A stretch of DNA of 64,000 nucleotides from Argyresthia goedartella (Eukaryota; Arthropoda; Insecta; Lepidoptera; Argyresthiidae): contig OX463816.1 of the NCBI GenBank assembly GCA_949825045.1, positions 15,309,579-15,373,578 on the forward strand, given 5' to 3'. The translations under genes and the position numbers were made by a program. Position 1 is the stretch's first letter. Each line of letters begins with the position of its first letter. Of this stretch, positions 20,284 to 55,956 are shown piece by piece. Below the pieces are notes generated by a model. The model did no database searches. It saw nothing but the letters and a program-made list of their open reading frames with translations, and was not told the origin of the DNA.

Positions 20284-20295
20284 GCAGGGTAACAT

Positions 20296-21401
20296 TATTA
20301 TTATTTTTATATATTGTTTTTAATTTATTGAAGGTTTAGTACACAATGTGACTATGTCACCTTCGTATGGGCTACAATTTTAATCTAAATCTAATTAGCT
20401 TACTTAATATAAACTTAACAATTATTTTCTAGCACGCATTCCAAATATAATTAATTTGTATAACCTTCGCGCATCGTCTGACGTAGGGTAAGATAATGCA
20501 ACATTACAGGCACCAATAATAGAAAACAGAAAATTGAGCCAAATGCTGGAGGGCGCTTTTTGAATCAGAAAGCACAGCTATATTTAAATGATCCAGCGTT
20601 GAGGCATATTCGATGGCCTTTTCTATAGCAAATAATTCCGCATATTGTCGATATCGATAATGATCGATATTTTACATTCAATTTTGTATCTTACACTATG
20701 ATTAGATTGAGGATCCCAAAATGCTGCTCCTATTTTACCATTACAATCTTTGGACGCGTCTGTATATAGTTGATAGCTATTTTCATATTTGGTCTGCAAT
20801 AAAAATGAGCACCTATCTACCAAGTACTTATCATTGTGTAATCTTTTGGCTTTATCTATATCATCAATTTTACTATAAATTAAATCATCTAAGTTTATAC
20901 TCATCCAAGTATCCAAGGAAAACATATCCAACATAGGACTGGAGTGTATGGGAAGACTGTTAAATTTTGTGTGAATATCTACTAATAATGGTATTTTGGC
21001 TGTAGAGCTCCGGTCGGTGTTATCAACCACTGAGAGTTCCTCAAATAAACGTATGGTATAATTATTTTCTAAAGACTTAGCACGTAACCAAAACTTTCCA
21101 GCCAAATATCTTCTTCTTAAATGCAAAAGTTGTAGACAAAGCTCGCTTTCCATTACATGTATAGGAGTTGTCTTTATAAACCCACCAATCACCCTCATGG
21201 CCTGATTTTGAACCTTTTCAAGTTTGTATAGATGACACTTAGCGCTTGTGCCATATAGGAAGCTACTGTAATCTATTCGGCTGCGAGAATAATAGATATA
21301 TACAATCTGCGAAGATGTATTGGGTGTACTCCCCAGTTGAGCCTGATAAAACTTTAAACACATTTAAGAATTTTTGAATTTTTTCTCGCACACTATCAAT
21401 A
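20296..21401 (-). pseudogene. LINE-B ORF2 3' part: RT C-terminus and RNase H
   Basis: The minus strand encodes the end of a reverse transcriptase ('REKIQKFLNVFKVLSG', then a frameshift, then 'SRIDYSSFLYG' and 'LEKVQNQAMRVIGG') followed by an RNase H domain. Its active-site blocks are 'YTDASKDCNGKIGAAF' (first Asp), 'ELFAIEKAIEYAST' (Glu) and 'VLSDSKSALQHL' (second Asp), the last two after another frameshift near 20640. After a stop near 20500 comes a 3' UTR with AATAAA near 20330 and a short ATAATAATAATG-type tail at about 20296. The reading enters directly from 33489-33654 once the Merlin insertion is ignored. Confidence 0.85.
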
Positions 21402-21922
21402 GGGTTGGTTTTTGAATGGTTCCAAATTAATTTGATTATAATGATATTTTTTATGGATAGCTGGCACTTACTTTTCATACCAAAGTGCTTTTCTTTTTTG
21501 TCGGAAATGCACAGTTTTTCTGAAAATTGAAAGTTAAAATTGCGAATTTTCTATGATCAAAACGTAATTTGCAACTAAAATCGGCAAAACATAACTTTTA
21601 TTTATTTATTTTATTTATGTTTTTATTTACTGATTACAGAGTTTACAGCACATACGATACAAATAAGACAAAAAGGTAAACTTATCTTTGGCCAATTACA
21701 AACTCTCATTATTTAAGACTAAGCAGGTATGATAGAAAGCATACAGTTTACATTAAAAAGAAAAATTAAATTAAATCAAAAATTAAATTAACTTACATCA
21801 AAATTACATTATTGTGGTTATGTGAGTGAGTTTGTGTATATGGGACTATGTGTATGGGAGTGTGTGTATGATAGAGAGAGAGAGAGAGAATTTAAATGAT
21901 TATGCAGGAACAGAAGGCAGGC

Positions 21923-24790
21923 TTACCTTTGTTCCTTAAGCAACGACATAATCCGTTTTTTGAAGAGCGGCTTTGATAGATGAAAAATGTCCGGGTCGGC
22001 AAAGTACTTGTTGTAAGTGCGGGGCAGCCTGCAGCTGATTGAGTTAGCTGCGTAGTTTGTGCGTGCGAAGGGAATATGGAAGAGTTTGTTTGCAGAGTGG
22101 CGAGTGCGAATAGATACATCCAGTTTAAGTAATGAGTTAACGAGGTCAGGGCAATCGACACCTCCGTTATAGAGGAGCATCATATCAAGCATCTTCCGAC
22201 GGTTCTCGAGGCTCTCGAAACCGTGGTGTTGGCAAGAGTTCTCGTATCCTTCGCTTGAAAATCTGTCACGGAAGTTAAGTTGTTTTAAAAACTTCTTTTG
22301 AATGCGTTCTACTTTGTCCACGTAGACGCCATACTGTGGATTCCAAGAAGTACTGCAATATTCAAGGACACTTCTCACATATGCACAGTAAAGTATTCGA
22401 ACACATCCCATGTCTGAAAAAGGTTTGGTGACTCTTAAAATAAACCCTAAATTTCTAAAAGCTTTGCTAGTTATTGCCTCTACATGCTCCTCGAATGTCA
22501 GCTTATCATCAAGAATCACCCCCAAGTCGCGTATCGAGTGAACTCTCAGAATAGGGATATTGTTGAGATGATAGCTGTGCAAAATGGGCTGGTTTCTTCT
22601 TGTGAAGCTGATGGTGTTGCATTTCGAGGCATTGACATTAATTCTATTTATATCATAGTAGTGTGTCAGACGATCCAAATCCTCCTGCAGCAGATCACAA
22701 TCTTGAGTAGACTTAATTTGCTTATATATTTTGTTATCGTCAGCATACAGGAGGAATTTGGCGTGGTGGAAGCACACACCTATAACGTATAGATAGGCTA
22801 CATATAATAGGGGACCCAATATTGACCCTTGTGGGACTCCAGACGGGATAATAATTTGATTAGACATGTGTTCACCAATCACAACAGCCTGACAACGGTT
22901 CGCGATATAAGATTTTGTCCATCGTAAGAGGTCGCCCTGGATGCCTAGTTTTTCTAACTTCCTTAAAAGTATGTTATGGTCAACACGGTCGAAGGCCTTC
23001 TCAAAGTCGGTGTAGATGGCGTCCACCTATCCACCGCCATCCATGTCTCTAAGTACCGCATCTACAAAAGTAGCCAGATTAGTTGTGGTAGATTTAGACC
23101 TCATAAAACCATGCTGATCCCCAGGGATGTTATTGGAAATAGTGGCGTAGATATGGTCGTGGACCACTCGCTCCATAATTTTGCTGAATGCGTTGAGTAT
23201 CGATATAGGCCTGTAGTGTTCTACAGGCAGCCTAGAACCTTTTTTGTGTATAGGCACAATATTTGCAAATTTCCACTGATTGGGAAAGACACCTTCGCAG
23301 AATGACCTGTTGAAGATGGTTGTAAGTGGTACAGCGAGAACCTTGGCACAGCGGGCGATTAGTATTGGAGGAATCTTGTCGCTGCCGGGGCCTTTACTTT
23401 TGTCCAGGGTGCTGAGTATTTTGAAAACGCTGTCTGTAGATACTCGCACCGCGCTTATAACTCTGGGATGGGCTGGTTCGAGGAGGTTAGTGTTGTGGTA
23501 TACTGCAACGGGTTCGCTAAACATCCTACCGAAGTACTCATTGAAGGCATTGCAAGTGTCTTTTTCGGTTTGAAGGGCAACCGTGCCATGAGTCATATAA
23601 CTGGGATAACCCGAGCCTTCTCTACGCATATTTTTAACGTACGACCAGAAAAGTTTCCGGTTATTTTTTATGCTATCTTGTACCAGGTTTATGTAACTTA
23701 TGTGACAATTATGTTGAGCGAGTTTGCACCTACTACGGAGGAGAGAGAACGCCTTGTAGTCTACGGGGTTCCTATGTTTTCTCCATACCTTAAGCAGTTT
23801 GTTTTTCTCTGATAATGGCAACCAGTGACCGACTATACCAGATTGGGTACTGACGCGAGCTGCTTGTTGTTCTCTTAGGGACGTATTTTTCTATGGCATC
23901 ATGTATATGCGAGTTCAACAAGCAGACCGCGTCATCAAGCGAGCCAGAGTCGACGCTAGACCAGTCGATTTTGGAAAGATAATTGTTCATGTCTTCATAA
24001 TTGCCTTTACGGAATTGGTACCTGAACTGCTTAATGGTGGGGATATCAACTATGCCAATGTCTGCGGTTTCCATTACAAGGGTTGTATGGAAAAGGTCTT
24101 CATCTACAACTGGTGACGGAGCCTGATGTATGTCTAATGGAAAATTGGTGTAGACAAGATCCAAAACGTTTTCGCAGCAGTTCTTCAGCCTGTTGTGTTG
24201 AGTAAGACCAAGGAAGTTCATTAAGCATGTTAGGTTGGTGGCAGAGTTCTGAAGAGCGACTGGACCAGTCCTCATGCATAGTGGCGCACTTGTGTCCCAA
24301 TTAAGGCAGGGTAGATTAAAATCTCCTACTATAAGATACAGGTCATCCGGGTGTTGCTGGGTGATATCACTCAGCCCCTTGAGAAAGTACTGTACGCGTT
24401 CAGGTAGGTTTACGTCAGGAGGTAAGTATACAAGGGAAATATGCAGATCATGTTTGGAAGCAATTGCGCCGCCCGGCACGGTCAGCCATATACTTTCGTG
24501 GTCGGCGCGATGGCACTCAGGCCGAGCGCGCGCATTGAGTGCGGGCGAGCTAAGTGCCATTACACCACCGCCGGCCGTCGCAGATGCACGGTCGTGACGG
24601 AATATGTTATAGCGATTGGGATCCGTGATCTCCGCGTTAAGAAAACCCTCACACAGTTTCGTTTCTGTGATTAAAATGAGGTCATAATCAAATGCCGCGA
24701 TACTATTATAAAAATTCATAGTCTTAGTCCTCAGACCATTCACGTTTTGATAAAATATGCGTAAGCTATGATTTTTGAATTTTATGCTGG
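21923..24790 (-). pseudogene. LINE-A ORF2: endonuclease and reverse transcriptase
   Basis: Read from high to low coordinates. The first part is an APE-type endonuclease with 'YQNVNGLRTKT' (near 24750), 'LILITETKL', 'SLVYLPPDV' and 'IVGDFNLPCLNWD'. The RT follows with 'KGPGSDKIPP', 'HYRPISILNAFSKIMERV', 'DFEKAFDRVDHNIL', 'GVPQGSILGPLL' and catalytic 'LYADDNKIY', ending at 21923. The enzyme would nick chromosomal DNA and copy its RNA there. Two lesions separate the three open stretches: a 1-nt slip in an A-run near 23813 and an in-frame TAG at 23027-23029. Otherwise the frame is intact, so inactivation looks fairly recent. No RNase H is present. Clade is given only as the CR1/Jockey group. Confidence 0.9.
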
Positions 24791-24949
24791 CTCGACATAG
24801 TTATGTCATAACATGTAGATTGGTTTAAGTTGTAGTTATTAATAATAGTTCTGCAGACGACAGAGACGGCTCCGATTAGACACATTGATAAGCATATTGA
24901 TTTTGATGTCATTGGTGTGATGTAAAAGATAACAAAGTGATGTATAGGT

Positions 24950-25314
24950 TGTCTTCGCCAAAATATAAAATATTACCAATTTATCTATTATTTAAGTACT
25001 GCTACCCTCACTACGCATTCATCACTCATTCAAACACTCACTCTTCCTTTCGCATCCTTTCGTTCATTCTTTTCCTGACGGAACCAGTTCAGATCGAGAC
25101 GCGCGCGCATAAGGGGCAAACCACTACGCTCCCCACAAGAAAATTCCTACAAACGCTAATTACGCTACCTAGTGATTGTGTTATTAACCTAGCACCGGTG
25201 CAGTGTAGTGTTTGTGAAAACCTATTTGGATTAATGTGAAAATCAAAACCTATCTCCTGGGTAGAAGACCAGCGCAAGTAAGGTACCACCATTCCTTTAC
25301 TTTTCCTTCTCCCA
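24950..25314 (+). repeat. BEL-A1 5' LTR
   Basis: A 365-bp repeat beginning TGTCTTCGCC and ending CTTCTCCCA, identical to 30060-30424 except at two positions seen by eye. The TSD TAGGT (24945-24949) lies directly outside. Confidence 0.95.
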
Positions 25315-25321
25315 AGTGTTT

Positions 25322-25338
25322 TGGTCCTTCGAGCCGGA
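25322..25338 (+). promoter_or_regulatory. BEL-A1 primer-binding site, tRNA-Tyr type
   Basis: TGGTCCTTCGAGCCGGA starts 7 nt after the LTR and is complementary to the 3' end of insect tRNA-Tyr (…TCCGGCTCGAAGGA plus CCA). It would prime minus-strand synthesis. The equivalent site of BEL-A2 (about 39411-39427) has changes, including in the TGGTCC part. Confidence 0.8.
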
Positions 25339-25755
25339 TACCTACTCCCTCAGAAAACGCATCACACGCAACTCATACATAATTTTCTTATATTTCACGC
25401 TAATTTTGATAAAATTGATACGCAAACTCATTCATGTCCGCCATTACAGTGGCCGGGTTTTCTCGTAATTTTCGGTAAATGCACATATTTCTCCCTCATA
25501 ATACCGCTATTATTATCTCATATACACACCATAGTTTATGTATTGTTTATCAAAATCAGCCGCACACTCATAGTTTTCAAAATATTCATACTAGTGAGCC
25601 GTACCTCACCCCCCGCCCCCCACGCTGTTCAAACCACGCGGTTTCTCATTGCAGCAGCCGCGCCGCGGACCGTTTTTGAACTCGATCTACCTAGTAACTA
25701 ACTTACTACCTATTTGTCTCACATTTGTTTACGCGAAACATAATAACGCATAAAT

Positions 25756-28126
25756 ATGACGCGAAATCAAAATAATGACGAAGAAATAATGATGGAAATT
25801 GTTCGTCTTACCGCTAAAAAGGAAAGTTTGTTCGTAATTACCCAAAAAATATACGATTTGAGCCTAAAGGTTTCCGATGAAACATGTAGATTAAATTTCC
25901 TAACGCAAGTTCAATCGCTAGAAAAAACTAGAACTGAATTTATCGAAACTCTTGATAAATTAGTATCAGCTGAATTGATTAATAATCCGAAATCTAAACC
26001 GGATTACTCGGCTATTCAATCTTTTGATGATCTTTATTGTAAAATTAAAGTTTGTGAAAATAAACTCAAAGACAAGGCTTCAAAAAGCGAACATAAACAT
26101 GATCTGTTAAATAAAAAACTACCTCCGCACTCCTAGCAAATGGTCACGCTTTTACGAAAACTTTAAAAGTCTCATACATGATAATTCACACTTAGCTGAC
26201 GCGGAAAAGGTTCAATACCTAGCAGGTAAATTGACGGGCAAGGCTTTAACAGTTTGCTCAGGGATTCCACCCACTGCGAGTAACTATAAGATTATTTGGA
26301 ACTCTTTGCTAGAAAAATACCAAGACACTAGGATCCAAGCTTCCTTTTATATTGATCAGATGTTACATTTTAAACCTAATCAACCGCTGGACGCATTCTT
26401 AGAACAGTTTTGTTCTGCAGAAGCTGCGCTGCAAAAATTAAAAATAGACGACTTGTCTGATTTCTTATTTGTTCACATCGCGCTTAACAAACTTGATAAA
26501 GAAACTGTTAATTTGTTTGAGCAATCGCACACATCAACAGAAATACCTACATTCTCGCAACTCACGCAGTTCATAAACGAACAAAGTAAAATACAAACAC
26601 TACGCACGCCCGCATACGCAAATAAAAATCATAATTCTTATAAAAATATAAATTAAAATAAACAAACACACGCTTTTCTTGTAAGTACCGAGGAAACGGA
26701 CTTGTACTCGCAACCATCTCACTCATCGCAAACGCACGCATATCTCGCACCGCAAACTCACGCATATCTCGCACCGCAAACTCACGCTACTCAAAACTAC
26801 GCACCACAATTACGCTCTTCGCAATCGCTCGCACCACTCGCACCGCCCGCATTCTCTCGCAATCAAAACGCACACTCAGCTCGCTCTCAAAACTTGCATG
26901 CTACTCACACTCAAAACGTGCAACCAACTTACTCGCAAAACTCGCAAACCACTCACTCTAAAAACGCTCCCGCACACACTCACGCACCACGCTTTCAAGT
27001 CACGCAATCGAATTGCTTGCTATGCAATTCTCACCCTTCGCACGCACTATATAAGTGTCAGTATTTTCTTAGTGAAACTCCGCTTTCACGTAATAATATC
27101 GTTGCAAAATACAACTTTTGCAATAATTGTCTAGGCTTTCACGATATTACAACGTGTCAGTCACAACACACTTGTAATATTTGCCGCCAAAAACATCACA
27201 CGTTATTTCATAATAATAATATAAATTTTACTCACCCGCCAAACGCTTCGCCTGTCACGATGCACGCGTCCGTAGATAACGTCGAATGTTACGAGCTGTC
27301 TCGCTCGCACTCGCCGCGCGCTTTAGGTACTCCGCTGCCGCCGCCGCCGCCCGAGTTTCGCTGGACGACGCATCCTATTCCAGCGCCGCAAACGCTTGAA
27401 CGCGCTTCTAGTTCGAACGTTGCGAATGCGCGCGCTAATTTAAACAACGTTTCGTTATCAGTAACGACTTCTCGTAATATTACCGCAAATAATAGCACGG
27501 TTATTTTGCCGACCGCTTCGGTTTATGTTTACAATGAAAACAAACGCCACAACATTCGTTTATTTATCGATTCGGGTTCTATGAGTCATTTTATTTCGAA
27601 AATATGTTGTGATCGCTTAAACTTAAAAATTACTCCCGCTTCAACAACGATCAAAGGAATCGGTCAAACCGAAAGTTCGTCGCATGGACTCACGACTTTT
27701 AAAATTCATTCACGGTTCGATCCTTTGTGTTCGTATGATATAGTAGCTCGTGTTATTGATTCGATCACCGATCAATTACCGAACGCGGAGCTAGACACTT
27801 CATATTTTACGCATCTCAATGACTTACCTATGGCCGATTGTAGTTTCTACATGCCGGGTGAAGTAGACTGTTTGATAGGAAACGAGCTCTTCCCGTTCCT
27901 CTTGGGACCTAATAAGGTTACTTCTCCACACTCTTCGGTAGTCGCAGTAGAAACTACTCTTGGATACTTAGCTATGGGCAAGGCCCAGACCGCGCACATT
28001 CGTCCTCCTGTTCGCAACACAAATAATAATAAAAATTTCTTTTGTTCTATAGAACAAACGCCAACGCTAGAAATGCTCACTGAACGTTTCTGGGAACTTG
28101 AAAATGTTCCAAATAAAAACATGTAA
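25756..28126 (+). pseudogene. BEL-A1 gag and protease region
   Basis: The frame opens with ATG at 25756. It reads a helical gag N-terminus to 26136, where a 23-bp deletion shifts the frame. Gag continues from about 26150, has an in-frame TAA at 26654-26656, and then a Ser/His/Gln-rich stretch with repeats of 'THAYLAPQ'. A cysteine/histidine cluster follows ('CLLCNSHPSHALYKC' and 'CNICRQKHHTLFH', about 27015-27225) that would bind RNA. The aspartic protease motif 'LFIDSGSMSHFIS' (27560-27600) is intact. At about 28126 a 1-nt shift moves the reading into the pol frame. The same region is open in BEL-A2 except for that copy's own deletion. Confidence 0.9.
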
Positions 28127-29910
28127 GTCCTGATGATGAGATATGCGAAAAAATATTTCAGTCGACATACTCACGCGATGACACCGGGCGTTATACCGTG
28201 CATCTGCCCTTTAAAGAGGACCCTACTCAATTAGGAAATTCCTATTCGATCGCGAAACACCGCCTTCTCAGTCAAGAGAAAAAATTAGACGCTAATCCGG
28301 ACTTACGCTCAAACTATAATGACACCATACAAAATTACATCGACCGAGGTTATTTAACTAAGGTTGAGAGCGCCAAAGAGACACCCCCTGATCGCTCTTA
28401 TTACATCCCGCACCACGCCGTTTATCGCCCCGATAAATCGACTACTAAAACGCGAATAGTTAATGACGCGAGTAGTAAAACTACTAGTGGAAAATCGCTA
28501 AATGATATACTTTATAAAGGTCCGAATTTACAAACTAACATATTCGATCTTTTAATAAATTTGCGTATGTTCTCCGTCGCTATGACGGCAGACATTGAAA
28601 AAATGTATTTTCAATTAAAACTTACTCCCGAACATCACGCTTTTCAACGCATTCTTTATAGATTTCATTCTCAATCAAATATCGATACATTCGAGTTTAA
28701 TCGCGTTTCTTTCGGCATATCTAGTTCTCAACTCGATTTTGGTCAAAGGCACCCAATCTTGCAGCTTACTAAGGATTTAATTACTCAACTTATTTTTGAC
28801 AACTATCATGTAACTACCCTCCACACTGGTCCATCACTTTTACTCGCATTGCTCAGACAGAAATTCTGGATATTATCTGCTAGAAATTTAGTTCGTCAAC
28901 GCGTGCATAAATGTAACAGATGTTTCAGACTTAAACCTAAATTCACTTTCCCACGCATGGGTGACTTACCGTCATTTCGAGTCTCGCAAACCAAAGCTTT
29001 TGTCTACACCGCTGTGGATTATGCTGGTCCTTTTTATATAACGCATATAAGACGTCGAGGAATTAAAAACCATAAGGCTTATGTATGCTTGTTTGTATGT
29101 CTTGCTACCAAGGCATTGCATTTGGAATTGGTCTCAGACCTCAGTTCTGAACTATTTCTCGCAGCTTTCAAACGTTTTATTAGTAGAAGAGGCCCAGTTT
29201 CCATGATCTATAGCGATGGTGGAACAAATTTTATAGGCGCCAAGCGCAAGCTTAATGAAATTTACGATTTATTACAGTCCACAGCACACCAAACATATAT
29301 TGGTAATTATTTATCTAATAATAAAATTCAATTTAAACATAGCCCCCCGTATGGCCCACATTTTAATGGCCTGTGTGAAGCAAACGTTCAATGCGTTAAA
29401 ACTCACTTATATAAAACTATAGGCTCTCAGATCTTAACCTATGAAGGATTCATGACAGTCTTGGTGCAAATAGAAGGGTTGTTAAATAGCAGACCTCTAT
29501 GTGTTTTAAGTTCTGAACCTGATGTAACCGCACTAACTCCTAATCATTTTTTAAATGTCACTCCTATAAAATTTTTGCCCGCTGAAAATTTTGTAGATCA
29601 ACCTGATAATCGTTTATCACGTTATCAGTTGTTGTGTAAACTCACACATGATTTCTGGCGAAGTTGGAGTCAGGAATATCTCACTTCGCTTCAACAAAGA
29701 GAAAAATGGACCATGCCATCCGATAATATTAAACTAGGCACAGTCGTGGTTATAAAAGATAATAATGCTCATCCTCTTTGTTGGCCTCTTGGAGTTATTG
29801 ATGAACTCTATCCCGGAAAGGACAATGTAGTTAGAGCTGTTAAAGTTCGCACTGCCTCTGGAAGCTATATACGTCCAGTAATCCGAGTTTGTACTTTGCC
29901 TACTCAATAA
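28127..29910 (+). pseudogene. BEL-A1 pol: RT start fused to integrase
   Basis: From 28198 the ORF encodes the RT N-terminal half ('KTRIVNDAS', 'MTADIEKMYFQL', 'FNRVSFGISS') and then jumps at 28725 into the integrase start, so YMDD and RNase H are missing. The integrase has its H2C2 finger ('HVTTLHTG' and 'HKCNRC'), the first catalytic Asp ('AVDYAGPF'), the second ('IYSDGGTNF') and Glu ('GLCEANVQCVK'). The C-terminal DUF5641-type domain runs to the stop at 29908-29910 and is complete here, unlike in BEL-A2. The fusion is an internal deletion through a TCTA microhomology, not a natural protein. Confidence 0.9.
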
Positions 29911-30059
29911 ACTAAACTCAATTTATCTTAAATTAGTATATAAGTCCTGGTTTTTTGGCATTTGAATCTATTTTGTTGTTAACTTTTTAACTTACTAAAT
30001 TTTAACATTCTCTGTTAACTTGTAGCTTAATATAGAGGAAACCTCTAGGCCGGCAGACT

Positions 30060-30424
30060 TGTCTTCGCCAAAATATAAAATATTACCAATTTATCTATTA
30101 TTTAAGTACTGCTACCCTCACTACGCATTCATCACTCATTCAAACACTCACTCTTCCTTTCGCATCCTTTCGTTCATTCCTTTCCTGACGGAACCAGTTC
30201 AGATCGAGACGCGCGCGCATAAGGGGCAAACCACTACGCTCCCCACAAGAAAATTCCTACAAACGGTAATTACGCTACCTAGTGATTGTGTTATTAACCT
30301 AGCACCGGTGCAGTGTAGTGTTTGTGAAAACCTATTTGGATTAATGTGAAAATCAAAACCTATCTCCTGGGTAGAAGACCAGCGCAAGTAAGGTACCACC
30401 ATTCCTTTACTTTTCCTTCTCCCA
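30060..30424 (+). repeat. BEL-A1 3' LTR
   Basis: Partner of 24950-25314 and 365 bp long. The TSD TAGGT follows at 30425-30429. The sequence before it (30030-30059, 'agaggaaacctctagg') is the likely region of the plus-strand primer, though no clean polypurine tract is seen. Confidence 0.95.
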
Positions 30425-30580
30425 TAGGTATAAATATAGGTAGGTAGGTAGGTATAATTCTCTCGGGTGTGTGAGTGTTGTGGTGATGTTGTGCTAGTGG
30501 TGGTTGAGTTGTGTATGTGTATGTGTTTAGTTTATATTGCATGTTAACAAAGGTGAAGGCGGCAGTTAGGTAAATTTCAG

Positions 30581-31302
30581 TTATATAATTTTCATCAAGT
30601 CTGTTTCTGTTGATATTAAAATTTGCGGTGCATTTATTCTTCTTACAAAAATGCGACAGTTTTTTGTCCAGATAAATTTATAACCAGAGTCTTTAGCCTT
30701 TAACTTACATGAGTTGAACAGTTTTTTTTTTTTTTACTGTTAGATGTTCATTTACATGTATATGCGACGGATCTCCGCTTATGCCGATCTTCGCAGTGTC
30801 CAGGTTTTGTGAGCGGGATGCAGCATAGACCGCGTCCTTGGTGCTGCGCTGCCTGAAGCGCACGACGAGGGCGCGCGGCTTGCCGGCCACAGCGCGCAGG
30901 GGCTGCACTCAATGCGCGAACTCGACGTCATCCGGTCCCAGCGCCACGCCCATACACGACGCGACCTTCTTCACCAGCCCGTGGATTGTCGCCTTCGGTC
31001 TCCGGCACTCCAACAATTTCTATATTTTGCAGGCGGGCCCACTGTTGGTTCTGCTGAGATTCGCGTTCGAGGACTGTGAGGCGAGACAGTAAGTCCTTGG
31101 ATTGACCAGACAACTTCGCGTTATCGGCCTGAAGGCTCTTGATCTCTTCATCTTTCTTGCAAAGAGATGAGTTGACGACGTCTAGGCATGCTTCTGCTTT
31201 CTCCAATCTATTATTAACGTCGACATAGTTGGCTTGACATATCTCAACGTCTGCACGGAGCGAGTTGAAATCAGAGTGGATCTTGGTTAACTCTTGTATA
31301 TA
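30581..31302 (-). pseudogene. LINE-A ORF1 (coiled-coil RNA-binding protein)
   Basis: The minus strand encodes, in three frames, a coiled-coil segment ('EEIKSLQADNAKLSGQSKDL'), a conserved 'RLQNIEIVGVPE' block, 'QPLRAVAGKPRALVVRF' and 'NEHLT', and a C-terminal 'GYKFIWTKNCRIFVRR' block ending at TAA 30581-30583. This order is the usual ORF1 of many lepidopteran LINEs, an RNA-binding chaperone of the retrotransposon particle. The C-terminal block resembles the domain shared with the baculovirus FP25K family (inference from memory of the motif). The N-terminus is cut at 31302 and frameshifts lie near 30920 and 30730. Confidence 0.8.
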
Positions 31303-34019: not shown

Positions 34020-34168
34020 AGTCTGCCGGCCTAGAGGTTTCCTCTATATTAAGCTACAAGTTAACAGAGAATGTTAAAAATTAGTAAGTAAAAAAGTTAA
34101 CAACAAAATAGATTCAAATGCCAAAAAACCAGGACTTATATACTAATTTAAGATAAATTGAGTTTAGT

Positions 34169-44524: not shown

Positions 44525-44771
44525 GTAGATATTAGCTGCACACTATAATCCAGCAACCAAGCCCCGAGTACTTTAGCACATGCAATCAACTTCTCAGTGA
44601 AAGACTCATACCTCTTAGAGAAGATGATATGTTTTATCTTCTGTATCAGCTCACCTATTTTTTCCTCTTTGTGTATGTGTATTTTTTCCGTCATGTCCTC
44701 TATGTACTCACAGCTATCTGTGTTAGAAGCTGGGTCACATAAGCTCTCTGTCTCACAGTCCTTTTTATCAT
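44467..44771 (-). pseudogene. LINE-B ORF1, C-terminal piece
   Basis: An open stretch that enters from the BEL-B junction at 44771 and ends at TAG 44467. It reads 'KDDKKDCETESLCDPASN' and 'MTEKIHIHKEEKIGELIQ', an amphipathic C-terminus. The first codons use one copy of the ATCAT duplication, so the frame continues from 54568 without a shift. Confidence 0.8.
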
Positions 44772-45317: not shown

Positions 45318-46026
45318 TTTTGGTAGCAGGCGCGGTTTCCTAGTGGGAAATCATCGAGTCACGGACGGTTGTAGGGTTGTTTTTTTGCCACATTGTAGTT
45401 GGGAGAAAAGGGTATCTCAGATTGGTCGGCAATCAGTTTGTGAGTGAGTCTTGTGGTCGGTATACCACAATTAAAGTTCATTTTCGGTTAGTGAAAGTAT
45501 AATTGACGATTTAGTTAACAATTATTATAAATTTGTAGTCGGAAACTACTCGGTGTGCATAAGAAACAGTCATTCGGTCGGACTATAGTATTGCAGTCGG
45601 GTTCCATAGCATTGCAGTGTTATTTCGGATTACAGAGCAGGGTCAGGCTATTTAAGGGGTATTAAGCTGATTTTGCTGACCTCAGTAGAAGTGTGGGTCA
45701 TATCGGAGGGGCCACTTCTAGAAGGTTCACAGCTACCTTCATTATATTAAAAATAGCCTTTTTTCTATAATAAATTTTTGTGTGTTATTTTTTATTGTGC
45801 CTTATGGTGGCATTCTCTAATTGATTTAGAGTGTATAGTCATAAGGTGTATGTCCACAGGGCGACCATATTAAATATTTTTTAGGATTTAATTGTTTTAG
45901 TGGTTGCCTTAGTTTTGACAACTTAGTTTTAATTTCCGTGCCCAGCGCTGACGGGCAAGTGCTGGTCTCTGGCTATACTTAGTTCGGTAGTGAAGTATAA
46001 GACCAGAATCTATTAAATCGGAAAAC

Positions 46027-47496
46027 ATGGCACCTTCGCCCTTGACGGTACTACGGCATGGTGTCCGTGAGGAAATGAGATGGCTCGCCCATACTCATAA
46101 GTATGTGGAGCGACCTGACATGGACAATGTCCTGCTCAAGCGTGTGGAGGACGCAATGACACGCGTCGGGAAGGTGTGTCGGCTGGCTGCGGAGGCTGAA
46201 GCTCTCGGGCTTACGGATGAAGCCTCGGTGGCTGCAGTGAAACAGCTCTGCGCGGATGCTGACCAAGCGATGGAATGCTTGGGCGACATCGAGCGTCGCG
46301 CGGAGAAAATTAAGCGGTCGCGACGGAATGACCGCGGGGAGGGTAACGGAGACCCACCCCCGAAGGGTGTTGTTGGACGGCTGCCACACCTGGAGATTCC
46401 GGCCTTCAGTGGGGCAATTGATGAGTGGCCGGCATTCATTAATTTATTTGATAGTTTGGTCCACGGTCGGGACGACCTGGACAACGCCTACAAGTTGGCC
46501 CAACTATTGATGGCTCTGCGGGGTGAACCGAAGGAGTTGGTCGGTCACCTAACGGTCACGGCGGGCAATTATGAGATAGCCCGGTCCATATTGTTTGACG
46601 GCTACGGCGGTTGGTTGATGCGCAGCTGGGGAAGCTATATCCCAAGAGTAACCCGGGATGTTGACATCCGAGTACAGGTGCTCAACCCTGTGCTGGTGGC
46701 CACTAAGGCCCTTCAGAACCTTGGTCTTCCGGTAGACCAATGGTCATATATTGTTCTACATATGGTTTTGTCACGGTTGCCTGCAGCTGTTCAAAGTCGG
46801 TTTGAACAGCTGCATGGGGGCAGTAGCTCGGAACTGCCCACGCTCGTCCAATTGACGGATTTTTTGAAGGGTGAATGCAGGCGATATGACACACTGGATA
46901 CGGAGGCCAGTGTGCAGCGCCGACCCGCGCGGATGCGGGAGGGGCCGCGCCCCCCGCCCCCACGGGGGGGTGGGCGTTCGAAACAATTTGGCGTTTTGAA
47001 TGCCGCGCCGTCGGGTGACGGCTGTGTGCACTGCGACAGTGCCGGTCATGAAGTGACCAGTTGCGCCAACTTTAAGGCGCTCGGGGTAGCTGCCCGCAGG
47101 AAGGTAGTCTTCCGCCACCAATTGTGTTTCGGTTGTTTGGGGCCGCACCCGCTGAGCGAGTGCTCGCGCGCGTTCCCCTGTGAGTGCTGTGGTGGCAAGC
47201 ACCACATCGTGTTGTGCCTGAATCGGTCAGGCCCTTCGGACGGTCACCAGGGCCGGACTCAGGTTGGTCGGCCACAGGGCCCAACCAGGGCCGGACCCAG
47301 TCCCCCTCCGGGCAACGGGAGTCACCAACGGGGTGACTGGGGTACCCGTGGACGGGACCCCCCCGAGGGGAAGGGGGCAGCGCGGGGGGTAATATGCGGG
47401 ATAGCAGGGGTTCGATCGCCGCTGTCCACGGTCAGCGAGGACTTCGGGCCACTGGCTCACTGCGTGTTACGGGCGGGTGTCAGATTGCACCTATGA
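46027..47496 (+). pseudogene. BEL-B gag
   Basis: A 489-codon ORF preceded by a leader of about 700 bp. Its N-terminal half is helical ('MTRVGKVCRLAAEAEALGL'), followed by the gag core ('LPHLEIPAFSGAIDEWPAF', 'LAQLLMALRGEPKELVGHL') and a stretch at 46595-46690 that matches family expectation poorly and may be frameshifted. Three zinc-binding clusters come next: 'CVHCDSAGHEVTSC' (near 47025), 'CFGCLGPHPLSEC' and 'CECCGGKHHIVLC'. A Gly/Arg/Pro-rich tail ends at 47496. The downstream ORF lies in the -1 frame and overlaps by about 100 nt. Confidence 0.85.
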
Positions 47497-49469
47497 GTAG
47501 CGCGAAGGCCGGGAGTCCACCACCTTCTGCGCCACCCTGCCCGTCGCTCTGGGAGGCGAACAGGGAGGCGAACAGTCGGATGTCGCCCCCATTCCTAGAG
47601 CGCCCAAGCTTGGATCCGCTCTCCCCCATTCATCCACGGTGCGCACCGGGCACACCGTACACCGTCCGGTATGATCGGATACCGGGACAGCGAGGGGCCT
47701 ATTATACGGGTTGGGACCCCTTGATGCACATACTGTCTGATATGCCGGTTGCATATCAGCAGCCGAGTTACTCCAAGGCCGACGGAGGTCTGAGCGGGTT
47801 CGGATCCCGCGGAGGTTCCCGCTAGGGACACGCCGCCCACTTACAGGGTGCCGCCACTCCACAGACGGTCATGCTCCCCACCGCCTCTGTGATAGCGTGG
47901 AGTTCGGACGGCAAAGCATGTGTGGCACGAGCACTATTGGACTTGGGGGCCCAGGGGTGCTTAGTCTCGTGCAACCTTGTAAGACGGTTGGGCATTTCGG
48001 TAAGGGAGTATCCACATTCCATTCGGGGAATTGGGAACACGGAAGTCGGTTCCGTTAAGGGAGTGTGTCGGATTACTCTCTCGTCACGGGTGGATTCATC
48101 GGTGAATCTGACGGTCACGGCATTAGTCATGCCTAATGTGATGGGCTCACACCCTCACGTACGGTTGTCGCCCTCGGTGCGACAGTTGGTCGCTGGGTTG
48201 TCACTGGCTAACCCGGAGTTCGATATTCCGGGCCCAGTAGACATTTTATTGGGTGTCGATGCCTTGGGATACGTGTTAGTGCCAGGTGTCCACGTGTTGC
48301 AGGCGACTGGTCTGGTTTCGGTCAACACCAGACTGGGCCATGCGGTAATGGGTCCGGTCATGCCGGCTGCCCCACGCCTAGCGACTCGTAGTCCCTTATT
48401 CGGTTCTGTACTCTCGGAGTTGATACAGAAGTTTTGGGAGGTGGAGGAACCACCTACGGTCCGCCGGTTGGACCCGGTTGAAGAAGAGTGTGAACAGTTT
48501 TATCGGAACAATACTGGTCGCCTTCGGTCAGGTCGATTTCTCACACGTCTTCCATTCCGGAGTGACTGCCCACCGCTGGGCAGTTCACACCATGCAGCCG
48601 AGACGCGGCTTCTGTCGATGGAACGACGCATGAAGCGTGACGGGATTTTCCGGCAGAAGTACGTCGACTTCATGCGGGAATACGAGTCGCTCGGCCACAT
48701 GTCGGTTTCGGGTATCGACTGGAAGCGTGAAGACCACTGCTTCCTGCCCCATCACGCGGTCTTGAGGACGCCGGAGGGCAAAATACGGGTAGTGTTCGAT
48801 GGATCGGCATCAACATCTAACGGCATGAACCTGAACCAGTGTTTGCATTCAGGGCCGAAGTTGAACCATGACATCGCGGATGTTATCACACGGTTCCGTC
48901 GACACAATGTTGTGTTTGTAGCTGACATCCGGATGATGTTTAGACAGACGGTCATTCACCCTGACGATAGACGGTATCAGCTGATACTGTGGCGAGAGAG
49001 CCCAGATCAGCCCATCAGGGTGTACGAGCTGAACACCAACACGTACGGGCTACGGTCTAGTCCTTATTTGGCGATTCGCACTCTGCGCGAGTTAGCGGAT
49101 CGAGAACGGTTAAACTTCCCTAGAGGAGCAGCGATCCTGGAGCAGGATCTCTACGTGGACGATATCTGTACCGGTGCAGATTCCGTAGAGGAGGCGCTAG
49201 CTCGACGGGACGAGCTAGTTGAGCTCTTACGGGGTGGAGGTTACGAGCTCCGGAAATGGATGTCGAACTCTCCAGAGTTACTGTCTGGTCTTCCGGATGA
49301 CTACCAGCAGGATACCCACATTTTTGAAAATTTGGAAAATCCAAATATGTGGTCGGTATTAGGCGTCCAGTACCAGCCGGTGTCAGACATGTTTTCGTAT
49401 CGGGTCGAGTTGGACTCCCCGAAGGTCTGGACGAAACGGAACGTCCTTTCAACGGTGGCTAGGACATTT
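47394..49469 (+). pseudogene. BEL-B protease and RT N-terminal half
   Basis: The frame overlapping the gag end runs through a Pro-rich linker, meets TAG at 47823-47825 and reopens before 47871. The protease region reads 'VARALLDLGAQGCLVS': the usual D-S/T-G is D-L-G, which would impair catalysis. RT follows with 'HAVLRTPEGKIRVVFDGSA', 'VVFVADIRMMFRQTVIHPDD', 'NTNTYGLRSSPYLAIRTL' and catalytic YVDD in 'QDLYVDDICTGAD' (near 49160), then 'LRKWMSNSPELLSGL'. It stops being BEL sequence at 49469, where LINE-D inserted, and resumes at 51955. Confidence 0.9.
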
Positions 49470-51948
49470 CATAATTCTTTATTGCACACACACATATTAA
49501 ATTTAAAAGGTTACATTAGGAGAAATCATATGTACAAAGGCGAGCTTATCTCTAAAAAGAGATTTCTTCCAGCAAACCAAGGCATGAAAGCGAAATGTAT
49601 CATGAAAGGGTAGGCAGTGTACAATATCTAATATCTAATCTATACTAAAATACATATATAATATAAAATACGGAAAATAAAATACTTACATACCAGACTA
49701 CTAAATACAATACATATATATAGTTTATATATTATAATGATATACATACTATATATAACTCTCACGAAAGAGAAAGGAAGTGCTCTTTTACCCGGTTTTT
49801 GAAAGAGACAAGAGAGGGACAGTCTCTTATAGTGCTAGGTAGTGCGTTCCACAGTCGAACCGCCTGCAGCCTGAATGAATGCTCATATGCCGAGGTGCTA
49901 TGCCTTGGAGTGGCTAAGAGTGAGACCGTGTGGGATCTCCGGTGCCGATCTCCTGAAAAGAGATACTCAAAGCGGTCTCGAAGGTAGCTGGGATAGCGCG
50001 GATTTTTCAATATATTGAAAAGATAAGAGAGAATATGAGTGTCTCGGCGACGACGAATTGGAAGCCAACACAACTCTTTGCGATATTGAGAAACATGGTC
50101 GAATTTGCGCAACCCGAAGATAAACCGAATCCCAAGATTCTGAAGTCGTTCGAGTTTGTTCAGTAAATCTTCGTTCGCGCTCGCCCAACAGACATCGGCG
50201 TAGTCGATTAGTGGCAGGAGAAGGGACTGAGCAAGGGTGATTTTGGTCTGCCGTGGCAAGAAGTACTGCAAACGCCTGAGGGAGTGAAAAGACGCAAAGA
50301 CCCGTCTGCTGACCTCGCTGACATGTGGAGACCAAGACAGCAGGTTGTCAAAAATAACCCCAAGGTTTTTCGCCTGATCTGTATACTCTATTGTGATGCC
50401 ATTGTATGACACAGGAACAATAAGTTTTTGTATCAAGGAAAGCGTGTGCCTGGTTCCTAAAAGCATGGCTTGTGATTTGGTCGGGTTTACCAACAGCCCG
50501 TATGATAAGGCCCAGTCTTTCACATTCTCGAGGTCAGCATTCAGTGCCTCCACGGTTGAAGCTACATCGCAGGGGCAAAAGTGGCGATAAATTTGGAGAT
50601 CATCTGCGTAAAGATGATACGAAGAAGAGATAACGTCGGAGATAGAGTTGATGAAGACTGAAAATAGAAGAGGAGAGAGAATACCACCTTGAGGCACTCC
50701 TGAGGAAAGATCACACCATTGAGTTTCGGTCTCTTCAGATTTAATGCGTTGCTGACGACCTCTCAGGTATGAGTGGAACCAGTTAGCAGCATGGACGGAG
50801 ACATTCAGAGAGCTCAATATAGCGACCAGGATGTCAAAATCGACACAGTTAAAGGCATTGCTAAAGTCAAGCAGGGCTAGGACCGTGACCAACTTCTGAT
50901 CCATGGCTAGCTGTATGTCATCGCTGACTTTTAAGAGTGCTGTGGTAGTACTATGGCCTGGTCTGAACCCAGATTGGAAAGGATTGAGAAGTTTGTTTGA
51001 TGAAAGGTAGGAGGAGAGTTGGGAGTGGACTATGGATTCAAGGACTTTGGAGAGAATGGGTAGGATAGATATGGGCCTATAATCTTTGAAGGAGGAGGGA
51101 TTGGATTTTTTTGGCAGTGGGATAACGAGTGCTTTCTTCCACAGACTAGGAAAGGAGCTCACCGATAGAGAGAAGTTGATGATGTGGGTAATTGGAGGAA
51201 GCAACTCCTCAAGGACGCTGTGGATCATCTGATAGCTGACGTTGTCGCCACCAGCAGCTTTAGATGTGATAGCTAGTACTGCCTTTCTAACTGCACCGAT
51301 TCCGACAAGCTTAAAGTTAAACGGTGAGTTGCGGACTGCAGCCCTCGATCGTAGACAATGAAGGGTTGCCTCCTTAGTGGTAGGGTCCATCACGACGGGA
51401 GGAGAAGAAAAAAACTGGTTGAGACCGTTGAGATCGACATTACCTGAAGTAGATTCCTGGGACTTGCCAACACCAATGGTTTTAAGGAACTTCCATACCT
51501 GAGCTGGAGTGTACATCTCTATACGCTCATGGATGTGGCGTCGCTTGGCATCGCGGCACATGCGGTTGCACAGGTTACGGAGGCGTTTAAAAGCTAGGAG
51601 ATTGTCGTTGGTCGGGTCCCTCTTATATCGCCCTTTTGCACGGTTTCTTTTTGCCATTAAACGCTTGATGGCGTCGGTAAGCCACGGGGCAGGAAGATGT
51701 TTGACCCTGACTTTTTTCATTGGTGCGTGCTTGTCGAAAAGCCCAAGGACAATTGAGTTGAACTTCAGGATTTTGTCATCAACGGTCTCACAAGTCATGA
51801 CAGGGTTCCAATCAACAGATGAGGCATCGGATTTAAGGGAGTCGAGGTCCACACCTTTGAAGCTCCGAATATCCAGAAATTTGGCTTTGCGCTTAGTGGG
51901 CCTAACTTTGTATGAAAGATAAACCAGGTCGTGGTAAGAGAATTATTA
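49470..51948 (-). mobile_element. LINE-D: CR1-like LINE inside BEL-B pol
   Basis: A minus-strand, 5'-truncated LINE of 2479 bp with duplication ACATTT (49464-49469 and 51949-51954). Removing it restores the BEL-B reading ('STVARTF' then 'DPNGWITPV'). The 3' end carries AATAAAGAATTATG without a poly(A) tail. The 3' UTR of about 290 bp is TA-rich. Confidence 0.92.
49762..51945 (-). CDS. LINE-D endonuclease end and complete RT (open ORF)
   Basis: One uninterrupted frame from the 5' truncation to the stop at 49762. It starts within the endonuclease C-terminus ('HDLVYLSYKVRPTKRKA'). A linker ('PAPWLTDAIKRLMAKRNRAK') and RT follow: 'SKAAGGDNVSYQMI', 'YRPISILPILSKVLESIV', 'PFQSGFRPGHSTTTALL', 'LLDFSNAFNCVDFDIL', 'SSGVPQGGILSPLLFSVFIN', catalytic 'YHLYADDLQIYRH' (near 50600), 'LVNPTKSQAMLLG' and 'AKNLGVIFDNLLSW'. 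The C-terminal 'LWNALPSTIRDCPSLVSFK' is typical of CR1-like LINEs. RT motifs are intact, implying a recent insertion, but without the 5' half the copy cannot move itself. The open frame begins at the junction, not at a start codon. Confidence 0.9.
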
Positions 51949-54016
51949 ACATTTGATCCAAACGGGTGGATCACCCCGGTAACATTTCAGCTAAAGTGTT
52001 TTATGCAGCAATTGTGGTCTGCTGAGCTGAAATGGGACGACCCGATCGGCGGGTCATTGAGCTCAGAGTGGGACTCGTTCTTTTCGACCCTCCCTGGCAT
52101 CAATCGGATTTCACTGCCACGGAGGTTGGTCCCCACCAAACGATACACCGCCACCCTGCATGGGTTTTGCGATGCCTCGGAGAAGGGCTACGGAGCTGCG
52201 GTGTATCTGCGTACGGTCGACTCCTCGGGGGAGGTTCATGTGCGGTTGGTCATGGCCAAGAGCAAGGTTGCGCCGTTGCGCACTCGCCTGACCATTCCCA
52301 AGTTAGAGCTTTCGGGAGCGGCTCTCCTGACTCGTCTGCTCAACCACACGATGACGGTTCTTCGTGGGTCAATAGCGTTAGAAGATACGGTCTACGCTTG
52401 GACGGACAGCCAGATCGTGTTATGCTGGCTGAAGGCTTCACAAGCTGGAGATTTTTGTGGCGAATCGGGTTTCGCAGATTTTGAATTCGGAGGTTCCCTT
52501 AATCTGGAGACATGTTCCAGGGGAAATGAACCCAGCAGACTGTGCGTCTCGTGGGTGTCACGCTCCGGAGTTGGTTGGACATCCCTTGTGGTGGGGTCCA
52601 AAATGGTTGACTCAAGCCGAATCGGATTGGCCAATGAGTCCACGCGTTACCTCGGTGAACGGCGCCTTGACAGTCGGTGTCTGTACGACGCAACCAGAGC
52701 CGGAAGAGGAGTTCAGCCTGCTGGAACGGTACAGCTCGCTCGACAAGCTGGTCAATGTGACCGCCTGGATCTTCCGATTTGCGCGGAATTGTCGCAATCC
52801 TGAGGCGCAACGGGTGCGGACACAGGTCCTGACACCACAGGAACGGAACCATGCGTTGTTCGCATTGGTACTGAACATGCAGACGGTGCACTTTAAGTCC
52901 GAACTGGACATTCTGAGACGCGGACGCGGCCAACTGAAGGGAGCTGTGGCTCGGCTCAACCCCTTTATTGACCCTCACGGATTTCTGAGGGTAGGAGGTC
53001 GGCTGCGGAATGCCAACCTGCCTTATGCGGCTCGCCACCCGTTGTTACTCCCTAGGAAAGGGAAGTTGGTCGAACTGTTGATACCGGATCGACACACTCG
53101 GAATGGGCATGTCGGATGCCACGCTTTGATGGCGTTTCTCCAGCGCGAGTTCTGGATTCTATCGGGAAGACGCTTAGTGCGTAGCGTCGTATTTCGGTGC
53201 CTGCCTTGTTATCGGGCCAAGGCGGCTACGATACAGCCCCAGATGGGCGATTTGCCCTCGGATAGGGTTAACGAAATCTGGCCCTTTGCGGGTGTCGGAA
53301 CGGATTTCGCGGGACCATTCATGGTCAAGTCTTCACAGCTACGGAACGCCAGATTAGTGAAGGCATACCTGTGCGTCTTCGTGTGCTTGGCCACGAAGGC
53401 AGTCCACTTGGAGGTGGTCAGTGACCTCACTACGGAGGCATTTATCGCATGTCTGGATCGGTTCGTCTCACGAAGGGGCCTCCCGACATTAATCCGTTCG
53501 GACAACGGCACAAATTTTGTCGGAGCCACGCGATATCTTCAGGAGGTCACTCAATTCCTGAACGGTAACCAGGACGCCATCGGTACGGCTTGCTCCCGAC
53601 GAGGGATTGAATGGGTTTTCAGTCCGCCGGGATGTCCTCATTGGGGAGGAATTTTTGAGGCTGCGGTTAAATCGGCTAAGTCGCACCTGACGAGGATCAT
53701 CGGTGAGACCTCTCTACGCTTTGACGAGCTTGCGACGCTGTTCTGTAAAATTGAAATGACACTGAACTCGCGTCCGTTGTGCCCGCTCAGTTCGGATCCA
53801 AATGATTTGGAAGCGTTGACGCCGGGTCACTTCCTGATAGGTCAGCCCCTTAACGCCCTGCCAGAATACCCATTCGGTGATGTTAAGTTAAGTCGGTTAA
53901 CTAGGTGGCAGATGTTGCAGCAGATGGCTCAAGATTTTTGGAAACGATGGTCCCTTGAGTACTTGCATTCCTTCCTATTAATTAGGGACAGGTTCGGGCC
54001 TGTCCGGGCGGGTGAC
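51949..54016 (+). pseudogene. BEL-B RT end, RNase H and integrase
   Basis: After the LINE-D junction: 'DPNGWITPVTFQLKCFMQQL', RNase H ('LHGFCDASEKGYGAAVYL', 'LTIPKLELSGAALL', 'VYAWTDSQIVLCWLK'), a frameshift near 52440, then 'VANRVSQILNSEVPLIWRHV' and 'PADCASRG'. Integrase follows with 'RHTRNGHVGCH' and 'CLPCYRAK' (H2C2 finger), catalytic residues in 'GTDFAGPFMVK', 'IRSDNGTNFVGA' and 'GGIFEAAVKSAKS', and 'HFLIGQPLNALPE'. The C-terminal domain is cut after 'FLLIRDRFGPVRAGDY' exactly where the 3' LTR starts, so the pol end and the region with the polypurine tract are deleted. Confidence 0.9.
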
Positions 54017-54562
54017 TATTTAATATTTATGCTTCGGAACGCACCGGTTTTTCGTTGCGCGGATCGACCGCGAGTGATCGGGACATCACTAGCAGCTGTC
54101 ACTTGTATAGAAACGAGATGACGAGTTAGAGGTTACTTTTCTTGACGTGGAAAAAATGTCGGCACATGGCGTTCGGGCCTTGGCTGTATTTCAGTAGTAA
54201 TAATTGTCTAACACGGGTGTCGGGCCTGGTCGGAGTGTTAATTATAATAAGCACGGAACAATCGTCGGGAATAAGTAGATTCACGTCATCGGAGTGAGTG
54301 CTTCGTGTTGTGAAGCTTGAAGTGGTTTGGTCCCCAATTCGTCGCGTTCGGCAGCGACGGCGACAACATCGGGCTACGACGAGAGTAAGATTCGACTCCT
54401 CTCCCCCCACCCCTTGTGCTCCTTATCCCGTATTCCTGCCTCGAATTGAGCTTTCGAATTCCGGTCTACGGCGTCAAAGGTCAGTACCACGTGTGATACT
54501 CCTGGTGAAAACCAACCCTACCAAGATTCCACGCCCGTTCGGTTGAGGCGTGGAATTAATCA
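54017..54562 (+). repeat. BEL-B 3' LTR
   Basis: 546 bp matching 44772-45317. The expected initial TG reads TA, consistent with the deletion that fused pol to the LTR. The TSD ATCAT (54563-54567) follows. Confidence 0.92.
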
Positions 54563-54567
54563 ATCAT

Positions 54568-55791
54568 CCTTGAGTTTGTGCTTACGACGTTTCGATTTTG
54601 TATTTGTTCCAGTCCCGTTCTGTTTTTCATGTACTGTAGCTTTAGTACAGATTGTAGCCCTAGTCAATGTTCTATAAGTGCCATCCTGCACAGCTTGTTA
54701 GCTCACAGCGGCTTGTAAAACCTCTGAATAACTTGATCCCAACTGGCCAGATTGCTTATTCAAAGTAGGACTTCTTTGACGAACATTTGCTACAGTAGAA
54801 AGTTGTGTGGTGAAAGCTGGAGGCGATGGTGGAACATAGATGGTGAGAACTCTTCTGTAAGTACAGTTAGCTTCAGCCATAATCTCTCTGAGTTTCTTCT
54901 CTTTTAGGAACATAGGGCAAATTTTAGCTAAGGCCATATGTCTGCCCGAGCAGTTAAAGCATTTGTAATCTGTCGTTTCACAGTTCAGATGATTGTGGCC
55001 GCACTTAGGACATGTTATTTTATTTGCAGGGCACATCCTCACCTGATGACCATACTTCCAGCATCTGGAACATTGGGTGACTGGGAAAATAAATGGATCT
55101 ACTTTCGCTCGTGTGTCTAAAATATAGACATGTGTCGGAAGCAAGGAACCTTTAAAACAAATACGGATAACTTCACTAGGCTCCCATGTAGCGTCATCGA
55201 AGCTGCGACGTTTTTGTCTTTTTACTTCAATTATTTCTACTTCCGACTTCAGGAGAGCGCAAATTTCTGTATCAGAAAGATCTAAGTCTATATTTTTTAT
55301 GACTCCGTAGGATACACCTACTTCAAAAGTTTTTTGACATCTATATCCTTTCTCCATAAAACTTTGGCATGACAGTAATCTCTCCGCATTTAACTCATTA
55401 TCGAATTCAATAATAATTTTGTAGGCGTTATGTATCTCACCCTTATAACACCTTTTATATTATCCGCTTTAAACAACCGAGCCAGTCCTATTTGTTTACG
55501 AAGTTTTTCTTTTCCAGTCATGCATATTTCAAATTTCTCTTCTGGTATTACTATATTATTACCACCCAAATTACATCTTAAGAATTTCTTCTTTCCTCTC
55601 GCCACTGTAGTCCACTCCTCTTCATTGTCTAAATCTCGGTTCTTCTTCTCCGCGCGTCCCCTTTCGTTACTTCCAACACACGTTTGCATATTATTCGACA
55701 TAATTTCCGTACTACCTCCATGATCGATATTGTTTACCTCGGACTTATCATGCTCGCTACCAATAAGCAATGACTCACCTTCACTATCCAT
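54568..55791 (-). pseudogene. LINE-B ORF1 (CCHC RNA-binding protein)
   Basis: ATG at 55791. The N-terminal part is acidic and Asn/Glu-rich ('RDLDNEEEWTTVARGKKK') and is followed by an RRM-like stretch ('KFEICMTGKEKLRKQIGLAR'). A frameshift lies near 55420. The second frame (55357 down) has 'DLDLSDTEICALL' and three zinc knuckles: 'CSRCWKYGHQVRMC' (near 55060), 'CPKCGHNHLNC' and 'CFNCSGRHMALAKIC'. A linker ends at an in-frame TAA (54698-54700) and then open sequence continues to the BEL-B insertion at 54568. Three CCHC knuckles in ORF1 are the I-element arrangement. The protein would coat element RNA. Confidence 0.85.
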
Positions 55792-55956
55792 TATCGGTAA
55801 ACACTACGCCACACATCAATACAGATAAAAAACTATAACAAGCTCTTGCAACTGCGCCAAACCGGTTTCAAAGAAAACAACAACGGGACGTCCTACGACC
55901 GCACTGAACGCCGCGCGAGTGCAGGGTAACATGCCAGCCCGACATCACAACATCAA

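What the first reader, a model, noticed from the sequence alone, without database searches (positions are those of the whole stretch)
20284..55932. One I-clade LINE dispersed over 35.6 kb by a four-deep transposon nest
Five separate minus-strand pieces read as one LINE (ORF1, endonuclease, RT, RNase H) when four inserts and one copy of each target duplication are ignored. The inserts are Merlin, BEL-A2, LINE-C and BEL-B; Merlin holds LINE-A, which holds BEL-A1, and BEL-B holds LINE-D. The deepest path is LINE-B > Merlin > LINE-A > BEL-A1. This explains nearly all of the central window with seven dated-by-nesting insertions.
Basis: partly seen in the sequence, partly recalled or inferred. Interest (0 to 1): 0.85.

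Follow-up and report, generated by a model that had tools for sequence, protein, structure and literature searches.

The report
LINE split by nested transposon insertions
A jumping gene in what is probably a moth or butterfly genome is broken into five pieces because four younger elements, two of which hold further elements, landed in it; it is a very clear example of a well-known kind of nesting.

Summary
Five minus-strand pieces (20284-21401, 33488-33654, 39801-40297, 42966-44771, 54563-55932) are one I-group LINE with a 12-bp target duplication at its outer ends. Twelve other copies of this LINE from the same genome were compared. Of those that keep both flanks of a site, all run straight through: BEL-B 7 of 7, LINE-C 10 of 10, BEL-A2 11 of 11, Merlin 11 of 11. 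The inner levels were tested the same way: Merlin copies run across the LINE-A site in 10 of 12 (two lack the left part), LINE-A copies across the BEL-A1 site in 12 of 12, BEL-B copies across the LINE-D site in 9 of 9 fetched. Corrections: LINE-B has its own ~520-bp deletion that cuts off the end of RNase H; the Merlin duplication is 8 bp with one extra base on one side; LINE-A's duplication is 5 bp. Nested insertions are common and five layers are in print, so interest is low although the verdict is near certain.

The parts
54563..55932 (-). LINE-B piece 5 (5' end, most of ORF1 with zinc knuckles); 12-bp duplication at its right end
   Evidence: P0041 residues 1-385; copies; duplication
42966..44771 (-). 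LINE-B piece 4 (end of ORF1, endonuclease, start of RT); private 31-nt deletion at 43750
   Evidence: Pfam endonuclease; P0001 residues 6-529; copies
39801..40297 (-). LINE-B piece 3 (RT core)
   Evidence: PF00078; P0001 residues 525-693
33488..33654 (-). LINE-B piece 2 (end of RT)
   Evidence: P0001 residues 691-745; copies
20284..21401 (-). LINE-B piece 1 (after RT, truncated RNase H, 3' end with TAA tail, 12-bp duplication); private ~520-nt deletion at 20535
   Evidence: P0001 residues 744-1032; no Pfam RNase H hit in the window ORF itself
44772..54562 (+). BEL-B, LTRs 44772-45317 and 54017-54562, 5-bp duplication ATCAT
   Evidence: unfilled in 7 of 7 LINE-B copies with both flanks
49470..51948 (-). 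LINE-D, 5'-truncated, inside BEL-B pol; 6-bp duplication ACATTT
   Evidence: RT
40298..42965 (+). LINE-C, 5'-truncated, TTTTGA-type tail; 5-bp duplication GAAAA
   Evidence: RT; unfilled in 10 of 10 copies with both flanks
33655..39800 (-). BEL-A2, 365-bp LTRs, 5-bp duplication GTAAG
   Evidence: unfilled in 11 of 11 copies with both flanks
21402..33487 (+). Merlin element with its own inserts; imperfect inverted ends, 8-bp duplication with one extra base
   Evidence: PF12762; ends; unfilled in 11 of 11 copies with both flanks
21596..31302 (-). LINE-A with its own insert, 5'-truncated in ORF1; 5-bp duplication ATAAC
   Evidence: endonuclease and RT; 10 of 12 Merlin copies run across the site
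24950..30424 (+). BEL-A1, 365-bp LTRs, 5-bp duplication TAGGT; the deepest element
   Evidence: 12 of 12 LINE-A copies run across the site

Best explanation
One I-group LINE (LINE-B) inserted here, by target-primed reverse transcription as far as its TAA tail and 12-bp duplication tell (inferred). It was later hit at four separate places by BEL-A2, BEL-B, a 5'-truncated LINE (LINE-C) and a Merlin DNA transposon. Merlin received LINE-A, LINE-A received BEL-A1, and BEL-B received LINE-D. Each insertion duplicated a few bases of its target, and the order within each chain of nesting follows from which element is broken (shown). The order among the four direct inserts is not known.
For: Same-genome copies unfilled at all seven sites: 7/7, 10/10, 11/11, 11/11 of copies with both flanks (12 compared), 10/12, 12/12, 9/9. 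Protein collinearity. Joined short flanks give one alignment in one frame for 31 of 31 relatives at LINE-C, BEL-A2 and Merlin. Matched target duplications. LINE-B's private branch is about 4% against 0.5-0.8% between LTR pairs, so the BEL inserts are younger.
Against: The BEL-B join is weak by protein alone: 10 of the 37 ORF1 relatives that hit the joined flank cross it, of 106 tried. Merlin's and LINE-A's duplications are imperfect or short. No unfilled host site of LINE-B itself was found. Long reads were not available.
Confidence: 0.97

Rival explanations
1. Assembly join: pieces of different LINE copies were put together wrongly, helped by the two near-identical inverted BEL-A copies.
For: BEL-A1 and BEL-A2 are inverted and 96-99% alike; no reads were available.
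Against: Both BEL-A copies have their own matched duplications, and the five pieces meet at the exact duplicated bases. Wrong joins would not give that.
Confidence: 0.02
2. Chance clustering: the five pieces are separate LINE fragments that happen to lie in order.
For: The window is rich in LINE remnants.
Against: The residue ranges abut, overlaps in copies equal the duplications in most copies, and the 12-bp duplication brackets the whole.
Confidence: 0.005
3. The nest is real but the place is special: a transposon trap such as a piRNA cluster or a region of low recombination.
For: Eight elements and more remnants lie within 64 kb. Nested transposons are mentioned for a Drosophila piRNA cluster (PMC7601171, one passage seen).
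Against: No small-RNA, recombination or genome-wide nesting data here. Other LINE-B copies also carry inserts (L016, L017).
Confidence: 0.05

Closest known systems
Layered nested insertions as catalogued by LTRtype and similar tools
   Same: Elements within elements; five layers (1,884, 338, 35, 4 and 2 elements) counted for LTR elements of Arabidopsis (PMC5379124, passages seen)
   Different: Here the chain mixes LINE, DNA transposon and LTR elements, and each step is checked against unfilled copies
Lepidopteran RNase-H-bearing LINEs (I group)
   Same: ORF1 with zinc knuckles, endonuclease, RT, RNase H; ORF2 relatives at about 41-51% over the RT piece, ORF1 relatives up to 73%
   Different: This copy is broken by four inserts and two private deletions
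Merlin DNA transposons
   Same: IS1595-type DDE domain, ends starting with GG, 8-bp duplications in some copies (PMC8101967, passages seen)
   Different: An apparent intron filled with 131-bp tandem repeats; the word intron does not occur in the main text of that paper, which does report a 163-bp tandem repeat in one Merlin family
BEL/Pao LTR retrotransposons
   Same: Pao peptidase, DUF1759, DUF5641, 5-bp duplications
   Different: Nothing of note; BEL-A1 and BEL-A2 each carry an internal deletion relative to the other

Membership tests
I-group LINE (LINE-B) | ORF1 with CCHC-type zinc knuckles (feature recalled) | tested here: met
   Read in the translation of piece 5 and similar to 106 ORF1 relatives; P0041 has no Pfam hit
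I-group LINE (LINE-B) | Endonuclease and RT in ORF2 | tested here: met
   PF03372/PF14529 and PF00078 in the pieces
I-group LINE (LINE-B) | RNase H after RT | tested here: met
   Met for the family: P0001 has PF00075 at 954-1079 and copy L009 aligns over residues 1-1217. In the window copy the domain is truncated and gives no Pfam hit
I-group LINE (LINE-B) | Short TAA-type tail and 10-14-bp target duplication (recalled) | tested here: met
   Tail and 12-bp duplication
I-group LINE (LINE-B) | Position among named clades in an RT tree | not tested
   No named clade references on hand; I versus Nimb and kin is open
Merlin | IS1595-type DDE transposase | tested here: met
   PF12762, E 1.9e-14
Merlin | Inverted ends of 24 bp or more starting GG | tested here: met
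   27 of the first 31 bases match, both ends start GGG
Merlin | 8-9-bp target duplication | tested here: met
   Of five copies with both ends found, L025 and L033 have 8 of 8, L032 7 of 8, L026 and L029 none; the window copy has 8 bp with one extra base
BEL/Pao (BEL-A1, BEL-A2, BEL-B) | LTRs TG...CA with 5-bp duplication | tested here: met
   one LTR of BEL-B starts TA, not TG
BEL/Pao (BEL-A1, BEL-A2, BEL-B) | Pao-type pol domains | tested here: met
   PF05380 in BEL-A2 and BEL-B; in the three BEL-A1 ORFs scanned only PF03564, PF18701 and PF17921, as that stretch of pol is deleted in BEL-A1

The most novel reading that the evidence does not exclude
The locus is a transposon trap (piRNA-cluster-like or poor in recombination) in which insertions pile up, so that the nest records a defence or chromatin feature and not plain chance.
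Probability: 0.05. Interest if true: 0.45.

Novelty: new member of a known kind. Interest (0 to 1): 0.15.

Why it matters
It is an unusually clean worked example: each of seven insertions is backed by unfilled copies of its host in the same genome, so the order along each chain of nesting is secure. That is useful as a test case for repeat annotation, which could report one LINE as five fragments, and as a local clock. It does not change any view of how transposons work.

Tried and rejected
Considered and rejected: assembly join and chance clustering (see rivals). For Merlin, a 9-bp duplication with two mismatches was considered first; copies show 8 bp, which leaves one extra base in the window. 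For LINE-D, a first candidate duplication (ATGAAAG) was rejected because the similarity to the BEL-A2 pol piece stops at 49469; ACATTT fits and other BEL-B copies bear it out. For LINE-A, an automatic word search gave no clear duplication; comparison with Merlin copies showed ATAAC. The unfilled host site of LINE-B was not found: the left flank holds a common ~185-bp repeat and none of the 40 other matches listed reaches the insertion point. Joined host flanks showed no reading frame that I could name. Rfam at gathering threshold and a tRNA scan found nothing in the window. Paper searches returned none; two returned three and two papers, of which I looked at passages of one (PMC7601171).

Not done: the third protein search, structure prediction and scans of the viral, phage or plasmid collections, which would not bear on the question. 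A genome search for LINE-C copies (40320-40720) and one for the right host flank (56233-56632) did not complete. Only part of the matches was fetched: 12 of 12 single-stretch LINE-B places at 93-96% (the two-part C11 copy and the 71-76% ones were left out), 12 Merlin places of 39 long non-window matches listed, 12 LINE-A places, 9 of 10 BEL-B places (a partial one left out).

Full report
What was claimed. A reader without tools saw five minus-strand pieces over 20284-55932 as one LINE, split by Merlin, BEL-A2, LINE-C and BEL-B, with LINE-A and BEL-A1 nested in Merlin and LINE-D in BEL-B.

Element identities. Pfam scans find endonuclease and RT in the LINE-B pieces and in LINE-A, RT in LINE-C and LINE-D, BEL/Pao domains in the three BEL elements and an IS1595-type DDE domain near the right end of the Merlin element. 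The LTR pairs are 365, 365 and 546 bp with 2, 3 and 4 mismatches (BEL-A1, BEL-A2, BEL-B, where one extra base at my chosen edge of BEL-A1 is ignored). The window lies in a genome of 1.109 Gb in 89 contigs. The relatives of LINE-B that carry an organism name in the two listings are all moths and butterflies, so the host is probably lepidopteran; it is not named.

The pieces are collinear. The RT piece found 39 relatives, 31 of them 1100-1300 aa long; the ORF1 piece found 106. Against P0001 the ORF2 pieces cover residues 6-529, 525-693, 691-745 and 744-1032; after a gap, short weak matches at 20517-20434 cover the last residues of several relatives, e.g. P0002 1204-1230. P0041 covers ORF1 residues 1-385 in the outer piece and 396-487 in the next. 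With one duplication removed, joined 180-nt flanks give one alignment in one frame across the LINE-C, BEL-A2 and Merlin sites for 31 of 31 relatives each. For BEL-B the protein test is weaker because the end of ORF1 varies: 51 of 106 relatives match both pieces; 37 hit the joined flank at E up to 10 and 10 of these cross it, the best with E 2.6e-31 and 7 gaps.

The decisive test. A 401-bp probe from the last piece gave 40 scored matches in the own genome: the window itself, 12 other places at 93-96%, one copy in two parts, and 25 matches at 71-76%. The 12 were fetched. They run through the insert sites. Counted by script (gap of at most 30 nt), contiguous copies among those with both flanks were 7 of 7 at BEL-B, 10 of 10 at LINE-C, 11 of 11 at BEL-A2 and 11 of 11 at Merlin; the rest of the 12 lack a flank. 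The overlap was 4 nt in 6 of 7 at BEL-B (the alignment stops one base short of the 5-bp duplication), 5 nt in 10 of 10 at LINE-C, 5 nt in 10 of 11 at BEL-A2 and 7 nt in 8 of 11 at Merlin. The others (L016 at BEL-B; L019 at BEL-A2; L017, L019 and L020 at Merlin) are contiguous with small differences. Empty sites are printed (10, 10, 11 and 6 copies for Merlin, LINE-C, BEL-A2, BEL-B). Copy L009 aligns to P0041 over residues 1-486 and to P0001 over 1-1217.

Inner levels. A Merlin probe gave 72 matches (40 of 252 candidates scored). Of 12 copies fetched, 10 run across the LINE-A site; L027 and L028 show no left part. Of five copies in which both ends were found, L025 and L033 have exact 8-bp duplications, L032 has 7 of 8, L026 and L029 show none. 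The window Merlin then has TATCAATA on the left and the same with one extra A on the right. LINE-A lies at 21596-31302 with ATAAC on both sides. A LINE-A probe gave 41 matches (40 of 152 candidates scored), and 12 of 12 fetched copies run across the BEL-A1 site, 10 with a 6-nt overlap and two (L046, L047) with gaps of 7 and 19 nt. A BEL-B probe gave 11 matches including the window; 501-base stretches of 9 were fetched, and 9 of 9 run across the LINE-D site, one (L060) with a 2-nt gap.

Order and age. By piece-wise identity LINE-B is about 5% from copies L009 and L017, which differ from each other by 1.8%. That gives LINE-B a private branch of about 4% (my arithmetic; gaps counted as differences). 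LTR pairs differ by 0.5-0.8%, so the BEL inserts are much younger than LINE-B, as the nesting demands. No absolute ages are claimed, and the order among the four direct inserts is open.

Corrections. Apart from its inserts LINE-B is not complete. It lacks 520-540 nt at 20535 relative to L009, L012, L015, L017 and L018 and 31 nt at 43750 relative to nine copies. The first takes away about residues 1033-1203 of P0001, that is roughly the last third of RNase H (954-1079) and most of what follows. Frameshifts and stops occur in several pieces.

Literature and novelty. Layered nesting is catalogued by dedicated tools, and five layers were counted for Arabidopsis LTR elements (PMC5379124, passages). 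Nested insertions have been used to order non-LTR activity in Heliconius melpomene and Bombyx mori (PMC4016481, passages). My searches do not show that no such lepidopteran nest is in print. The finding is real and clear but ordinary in kind.

Noticed in passing
32251-32778: Four 131-bp tandem repeats fill an apparent intron in the Merlin transposase (GT...AG read from the sequence, splicing not tested). Other Merlin copies in the genome carry the same repeat.
   Followed up: partly
24950-30424 and 33655-39800: BEL-A1 and BEL-A2 are inverted copies 3.2 kb apart; each keeps its own matched duplication, so no inversion between them is needed. Each carries an internal deletion in pol relative to the other.
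   Followed up: partly
59511-61489: Probable Tc1/mariner-type element: inverted ends of about 130 bp (82%) around a 344-aa ORF with HTH_29 and HTH_32 domains.
   Followed up: no
62289-63562: Plus-strand remnant of another RNase-H LINE, with RNase_H and zf-RVT domains.
   Followed up: no
10034-13585: Decayed relative of LINE-C (10034-11497) and a 595-bp LINE-C 3' fragment at 12991-13585 that is 99% identical to the end of LINE-C.
   Followed up: no
20040-20226: Common ~185-bp repeat beside the LINE-B insertion point; 40 of 967 candidates were scored, the other copies listed being 81-89% identical.
   Followed up: partly
55957-56217: Inverted repeat with 85-nt arms (87% complementary), possibly a MITE, just right of LINE-B.
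   Followed up: no
L016 4696-5467 and L017 326-1865: Two other LINE-B copies hold inserts related to LINE-D (72-95% identical stretches), so LINE-B copies elsewhere are also interrupted.
   Followed up: no
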